From NCBI GenBank assembly GCA_002898775.1, contig BEHK01000007.1, forward strand, positions 1 to 43,420: a stretch of 43,420 bases of DNA, read 5' to 3'. Position 1 is the first letter of the stretch; each line of letters starts with the position of its first letter. The translations under genes and the position numbers were made by a program. Source of the stretch: a bacterium HR08 (lineage in GTDB: Bacteria; Acidobacteriota; Blastocatellia; HR10). Below, piece by piece: positions 22,211-22,831 of this stretch. The notes under the pieces are model-generated. The model did not search any database. It saw only the letters and a list, made by a program, of their open reading frames with translations, and was not told the origin of the DNA.

Positions 22211-22831
22211 ATGCCTGCTGTCCCGTTAAAAGATGCGGACGATCTTCCGCCCGACTTGCAGCGCCTCATCGCCGAATATGACGCGTGGATCGGAGATACG
22301 ACCTTCGCCCGCGTCATCGCCCATCGGCCTGAGGCCTTTCGGGCGTTTCACGCATTGTACGTGTCGCTGCTCGAGGGTCGCGTCGAATCGGAGATCAAGG
22401 AGCTGGCCCGACTGCGGCTCGCGCGACTGAACGGGTGCGCGTACTGAATGGCAGCGAATCTCGCCTGGGCCAGGCGAAACCAGATCCCCGAGGAGAAGGT
22501 CCGTGGGCTCGATGATCCCGATCGCGGGCCATTCACACCTCGCGAGAAGGCCGTCCTGAAACTGGCCGAGATCATGGCGCATCGCTCGGAGGCCGTCTTG
22601 GAAGCGGCAGTGCTGGAGGAGTTGAAGCGAGAGCTGACAGACGAGGAGCTCGTGGAGCTCGGCATGTACTTCGCGCTCGTCACCGGATTCCAGAAGTTCA
22701 ACACCGCGTTTGGCATCCTCTACGCCTGCGCGACGGAGCCGCCCACCGGGGGTCCCCACGCGATCTCGAGATCGCTTGGGGGGTCCCCGTCCGGCGGCGC
22801 CGATTTGACAGAGGAGCGGGAAATGCGATAA
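22211..22831 (+). CDS. Probable selenocysteine-containing carboxymuconolactone decarboxylase/AhpD-like protein (TGA at 22445-22447 read as Sec)
   Basis: Two ORFs in the same frame separated by one TGA (22211..22447, 22448..22831) join into one CMD-like protein ELARLRLARLNGCAY[U]MAANLAWARRNQIPEEKV; TGA sits at the second Cys of the family CxxC motif; hairpin downstream. Confidence 0.75.
22461..22477 (+). promoter_or_regulatory. Putative bacterial SECIS element (TCGCCTG-GGC-CAGGCGA)
   Basis: Perfect 7-bp stem, loop GGC starting with G; 20 nt between the TGA and the apical loop. Confidence 0.65.
22748..22788. repeat. Hairpin repeat copy R6, inside the 3' end of the selenoprotein ORF
   Basis: GGGGGTCCCCACGCGATCTCGAGATCGCTTGGGGGGTCCCC; encodes TGGPHAISRSLGGSP in the ORF tail. 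Confidence 0.65.

What the first reader, a model, noticed from the sequence alone, without database searches (positions are those of the whole stretch)
22211..22831. Probable selenoprotein: CMD/AhpD-like protein with in-frame TGA giving CxxU and an adjacent bSECIS-like hairpin
Seen: ORFs 22211..22447 and 22448..22831 share one frame, separated only by TGA 22445-22447. Joined, they give ...KELARLRLARLNGCAY-U-MAANLAWARRNQIPEEKV..., a full-length CMD/AhpD-like protein with the TGA at the second Cys of the CxxC redox motif. At 22461-22477 there is a perfect 7-bp stem TCGCCTG/CAGGCGA with a GGC loop, 20 nt after the TGA. Established: bacterial SECIS elements lie just downstream of the Sec codon with a small apical loop starting with G, and AhpD-like proteins are a known source of bacterial Sec families. 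The family's usual His after the CxxC is Asn here. Inference: standard callers would split it into two proteins, and its placement after a TonB receptor in an acyl-CoA catabolic locus suggests a thiol/selenol redox role there.
Basis: partly seen in the sequence, partly recalled or inferred. Interest (0 to 1): 0.88.

Follow-up and report, generated by a model that had tools for sequence, protein, structure and literature searches.

The report
Selenocysteine-containing AhpD/CMD-family redox protein
A gene that ordinary gene finders split in two at a UGA codon really encodes one redox protein with the rare amino acid selenocysteine in its active site; the evidence for the recoding is very strong, and the protein is a new branch of a known kind of bacterial selenoprotein.

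Summary
Window 22211-22831 (+) is one CMD/AhpD-like gene (PF02627) whose in-frame TGA (22445-22447) replaces the second Cys of CxxC. The TGA is kept in the window's copy and all six orthologues found in the genus and order (59-93% identity), with purifying selection on both sides. The hairpin at 22461-22477 is a genuine bacterial SECIS: in 30 distinct Sec-coding acidobacterial homologues a stem closes a GGC loop exactly 20 nt after the UGA, 99.5% of cells pair and 6 of 7 pairs show changes on both sides; none of 48 Cys-coding homologues has it there. The genome has selA, selB and selD, and selD itself carries a TGA. tRNA-Sec is missing from this 73%-complete draft but present in all 11 relatives checked. 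CMD- and AhpD-like CxxU selenoproteins have been known since 2005, so this is a new, unnamed subfamily of a known kind. It lies in an acyl-CoA catabolic locus that is syntenic across the order; the TonB-receptor neighbour is specific to the genus. The substrate is unknown; a selenol/thiol peroxidase or reductase role is inferred.

The parts
22199..22206 (+). Likely ribosome-binding site (GAGGGGGG) before ATG 22211
   Evidence: Sequence; the orthologues have GGAGG-like motifs before the same ATG
22211..22831 (+). Seleno-CMD/AhpD-like gene, 206 aa with Sec79, stop TAA
   Evidence: Read-through frame; PF02627 at 36.7 bits, gathering score 23; orthologues
22436..22438 (+). TGC, codon of Cys76, first residue of CxxU
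   Evidence: Invariant in 7/7
22445..22447 (+). TGA read as selenocysteine (Sec79)
   Evidence: TGA in 7/7 orthologues; Cys in 48 more distant homologues
22461..22477 (+). bSECIS hairpin: 7-bp stem, GGC loop 22468-22470, loop 20 nt after the UGA
   Evidence: Covariation in 30 distinct Sec sequences; absent from Cys homologues
22842..22859 (+). Palindrome ACCAAACGAGCGTTTGGT between the selenoprotein and the next gene; possible TetR-type operator (context, not part of the recoding)
   Evidence: 4 matches in the window with up to 3 mismatches, 0.09 expected; TetR gene at 34392-35099

Best explanation
The gene encodes a CMD/AhpD-family selenoprotein. During translation SelB and Sec-tRNA-Sec, recruited by the hairpin that begins 13 nt downstream, decode UGA 22445-22447 as selenocysteine, giving a CxxU active site (Cys76, Sec79) at the start of a helix. 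Shown here by comparison: recoding, the SECIS, and the presence of selA, selB and selD. Inferred from the family: Sec79 is the attacking selenolate and Cys76 the resolving thiol in reducing a (hydro)peroxide or another electrophile, probably one made in the surrounding acyl-CoA / flavin-monooxygenase pathway, and a cellular dithiol regenerates the enzyme.
For: TGA conserved at one codon in 7/7 orthologues while the next codon varies; dN well below dS on both sides of the TGA; SECIS covariation 0.801 against 0.296 in shuffles and at most 0.206 when slid; SECIS absent at that place in 48 Cys homologues; selA, selB, selD present; tRNA-Sec in 11/11 relatives; the same genome's selD has a TGA followed by a hairpin with a GG-starting loop; fits the published bSECIS limits on spacing, loop and stem (PMC13188914); closest sequences and folds are AhpD-like proteins.
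Against: tRNA-Sec is not in the window's own draft genome. Folding energy of the hairpin region alone is not unusual. No direct evidence of Sec insertion or of any substrate; the relay His of AhpD is Asn here, so classic AhpD chemistry is uncertain.
Confidence: 0.95

Rival explanations
1. Pseudogene or sequencing error: the TGA is a recent nonsense mutation or a miscalled TGC/TGT.
For: Single draft genome; the ORF is split.
Against: The same TGA is in seven separately assembled genomes down to 59% identity, with selection on the downstream half and a covarying hairpin.
Confidence: 0.01
2. Two separate proteins: the upstream ORF ends at the TGA and the downstream ORF starts at ATG 22448.
For: ATG directly follows the TGA in the window, and gene callers report the downstream half.
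Against: The ATG is not conserved: orthologues have ACG, GAG or AAG at that codon. The PF02627 match runs across the TGA. The SECIS would have no purpose.
Confidence: 0.01
3. It is a selenoprotein, but not a peroxide reductase: the CxxU site does a pathway-specific reduction or isomerisation of a catabolic intermediate.
For: The fold family includes the debrominase Bmp8; the gene is kept in a CoA-ester catabolic locus across the order; the relay His is Asn in all seven.
Against: No substrate evidence either way; a general redox or peroxide role is the usual reading of CxxU in this superfamily.
Confidence: 0.3

Closest known systems
CMD domain-containing selenoprotein, PF02627, CxxU (PMC1088965; listed in PMC13188914)
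   Same: Same Pfam domain, same CxxU motif, bSECIS just downstream of the UGA
TIGR01926 / COG2128 AhpD-like selenoproteins
   Same: Related domain and CxxU; weak match (48.9 bits)
   Different: Below the curated cut-off of 81.8 bits; Asn instead of His after CxxU
NF053654 YciW-related (seleno)protein
   Same: Best NCBIfam match (53.8 bits); members also have Asn in that place; Sec in acidobacterial copies such as L034 (351 bits)
   Different: Far below the cut-off of 310 bits; SECIS loop about 3 nt nearer to the UGA in the six copies read
Solved AhpD-like proteins PA0269 (2ijc, 7xw1) and Atu0492 (2gmy)
   Same: Closest by sequence profile and by fold
   Different: PA0269 has Cys at the Sec position (CAYC); about 30% identity

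Membership tests
Bacterial selenoprotein gene | In-frame UGA conserved in orthologues, aligned with Cys in homologues | tested here: met
   7/7 TGA among orthologues; 48 Cys among more distant homologues
Bacterial selenoprotein gene | bSECIS: G in the first two loop positions, loop 3-9 nt, spacing 16-37 nt, stem 4-16 bp | tested here: met
   GGC loop, spacing 20, stem 7 bp; strong covariation (limits)
Bacterial selenoprotein gene | selA, selB, selD in the genome | tested here: met
   All above curated cut-offs
Bacterial selenoprotein gene | tRNA-Sec (selC) in the genome | tested here: inconclusive
   Absent from the 73%-complete own draft, present in 11/11 relatives
Bacterial selenoprotein gene | Selenium in the protein | not testable with these tools
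   Needs 75Se labelling or mass spectrometry
CMD family PF02627 | Profile match above the gathering score | tested here: met
   36.7 against 23 bits
TIGR01926 peroxidase-related enzyme | Score above the curated cut-off | tested here: not met
   48.9 against 81.8 bits
NF053654 YciW-related (seleno)protein | Score above the curated cut-off | tested here: not met
   53.8 against 310 bits
AhpD alkylhydroperoxidase | CxxC (or CxxU) followed four residues later by the relay His (motif from family knowledge) | tested here: not met
   CxxU present, but the His position is Asn83 in all seven orthologues
AhpD alkylhydroperoxidase | Reduces hydroperoxides using a dithiol partner | not testable with these tools
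   Needs an enzyme assay

The most novel reading that the evidence does not exclude
A Sec-only subfamily of CMD proteins (Cys76, Sec79, Asn83, invariant C-terminal Cys173) with a pathway-specific catalytic role in an acyl-CoA / flavin-monooxygenase degradation locus of Blastocatellia relatives: a catabolic selenoenzyme rather than a general peroxide scavenger.
Probability: 0.25. Interest if true: 0.65.

Novelty: new member of a known kind. Interest (0 to 1): 0.42.

Why it matters
It is a split, mis-called selenoprotein in a phylum for which a 2006 survey counted only 4 selenoproteins of 3 families (PMC1794560). The phylum-wide comparison gives an unusually clean case of a SECIS held in a fixed register inside a coding sequence, present with Sec and absent with Cys, useful for SECIS models and for correcting annotation. 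Its conservation inside one catabolic locus makes a specific selenol redox step there testable.

Tried and rejected
Plasmid and viral collections gave only distant relatives or none. Single-sequence folding energy was uninformative. The weak tRNA-Sec matches in the own genome turned out to be tRNA-Ser, tRNA-Leu and other ordinary tRNAs. A DNA search for the tRNA-Sec region of the nearest relative in the own draft found nothing (no positive control, so it only fits with a missing region). The structure model (mean pLDDT 60.6) is good enough for the fold but not for active-site geometry. One NCBIfam scan failed on coordinates and was redone with other input. A scan of the window for other recoded TGAs found one more weak candidate at 7483 with no support.

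Full report
Observation. The sequence at 22211-22831 is as described: one frame, one TGA at 22445-22447, 206 residues read through, with CAYU in place of CxxC. The stem TCGCCTG/CAGGCGA with loop GGC lies at 22461-22477; the loop begins 20 nt and the stem 13 nt after the TGA. The joined protein matches PF02627 over its gathering score (36.7 against 23 bits) along residues 40-98, across the TGA.

Conservation of the recoded codon. Among 60 related genomes, all six orthologues (59-93% identical; four from the same genus, two from another family of the order) have an in-frame TGA at this codon. The next codon varies (ATG, ACG, GAG, AAG), so the ATG in the window is not a conserved restart, and dN is well below dS on both sides of the TGA. 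Together these exclude a sequencing error, a fresh nonsense mutation and a two-gene reading. A collection of 5.8 billion proteins holds only the downstream 127-aa half, so current gene calling splits the gene.

The SECIS. In the seven orthologues the 7-bp stem is kept, with a C-G to U-A change on both sides in L029/L030. A search of 396 acidobacterial genomes with the profile found many more CMD homologues with one TGA, beside others with none. I read the aligned site in 97 loci: 45 Sec (42 without three duplicate loci), 48 Cys, 3 Val, 1 Ser. In 30 distinct Sec sequences a stem of 6-8 bp closes a GGC loop at exactly the same distance from the UGA. On these, 99.5% of cells pair, 6 of 7 pairs have changes on both sides, and the covariation score is 0.801 against 0.296 in shuffles and at most 0.206 when slid. 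These 30 were chosen because they pair there, which favours the percentage paired but not the compensatory changes. Of the 48 Cys loci none keeps more than 2 pairs at that place. Six Sec sequences with the QDINAAV motif have a hairpin with its loop at 17-18 nt instead. The element meets the published bSECIS limits on loop, stem and spacing (PMC13188914). Folding energy alone would not have shown it (z = 0.13).

The machinery. The window's genome (2.6 Mb, 197 contigs, 73.5% complete) has selA, selB and selD above curated cut-offs. Its selD has its own in-frame TGA (GAG-U-ACK), followed by GGACCT-GGTCG-AGGTCC, again a loop starting with GG and closed by U-A. tRNA-Sec is not in this draft, but four congeners and seven further relatives all have it at 68-76 bits; the two aligned copies show a UCA anticodon. 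The 9 kb around it in the nearest relative finds no match in the draft, which fits a missing piece; that search had no positive control. The nearest named records are bacterium HR10 and Blastocatellia/Acidobacteriota MAGs.

Evolution. On a quick tree of 92 homologues the Sec/non-Sec label changes 10 times at the fewest, at least 5 forced by well-supported branches, so Sec and Cys have interchanged repeatedly in this superfamily. The window's orthologue group is Sec only (7/7) and a well-supported clade; its nearest neighbours are uncertain because of long branches. In one pair, L115 (Sec) and L086 (Cys), the Cys gene still has a 6-bp hairpin nearby, a possible relic.

Function. Sequence and fold both point to AhpD/CMD proteins such as PA0269 and Atu0492, with the debrominase Bmp8 further off. 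Glu64 lies 12 residues before Cys76, and Asn83 sits where AhpD has its relay His (AhpD motif from my own knowledge). Asn83 and a C-terminal Cys173 are invariant in the seven. The gene keeps its place between a DUF2889 gene and a glyoxalase-like gene in six relatives; in the four congeners a second TonB-type receptor lies between DUF2889 and it, in G008 and G009 none does. The wider locus (acyl-CoA ligase, luciferase-like monooxygenases, amidohydrolase, enoyl-CoA hydratase, thiolases, ChsH2-like OB proteins, acyl-CoA dehydrogenase, CoA transferase) is syntenic in four congeners and in G008. A redox role, with attack by Sec79 and resolution by Cys76, is the most likely mechanism; the substrate is not known. 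An 18-bp palindrome at 22842-22859 may be a TetR operator for the next unit, so co-transcription with the downstream genes is unproven.

Place among known things. CMD and AhpD-like CxxU selenoproteins have been known since the Sargasso Sea survey (PMC1088965), were abundant in ocean data (PMC2398784) and are listed in a 2026 catalogue (PMC13188914). This group falls below the cut-offs of TIGR01926 and NF053654, so it is an unnamed subfamily of a known kind. That Sec is inserted is close to certain; what is reduced remains open.

Noticed in passing
window 1328-1345, 3491-3508, 22842-22859 (and 361-378, weaker): Copies of the palindrome ACCAAACGNNCGTTTGGT, 4 found against 0.09 expected; probably operators of a TetR regulator, perhaps the one at 34392-35099.
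   Followed up: partly
G000:C18:28780-29703 (L018): selD of the same genome is itself a selenoprotein gene, with TGA and a hairpin GGACCT-GGTCG-AGGTCC about 26 nt downstream.
   Followed up: yes
L034, L037, L125, L126, L127, L129: A second acidobacterial CMD selenoprotein group with motif CxFUQDINAAV (L034 scores 351 bits for NF053654) whose SECIS loop lies 17-18 nt after the UGA instead of 20.
   Followed up: partly
L086 (Cys) and L115 (Sec): Close relatives, one with Cys and one with Sec; the Cys gene keeps a 6-bp hairpin near the SECIS place, a possible relic of a recent Sec-to-Cys change.
   Followed up: no
L087, L090, L100, L103: CMD selenoproteins with about 100-150 extra C-terminal residues; L087's extension (LVERVAALLASRLA end) looks GAF-like by eye and was not scanned with Pfam.
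   Followed up: no
L045 (G005): A TIGR01926 protein (181 bits) with TGA giving CxxU and a hairpin with loop GGA 17 nt after the UGA, in the other genus of the same family.
   Followed up: partly
window 22906-24159 and 22878-23294: The amidohydrolase ORF with its TTG start at 22906 overlaps the glyoxalase gene in another frame; the PF04909 match begins only at residue 138, so the true start is probably further downstream.
   Followed up: no
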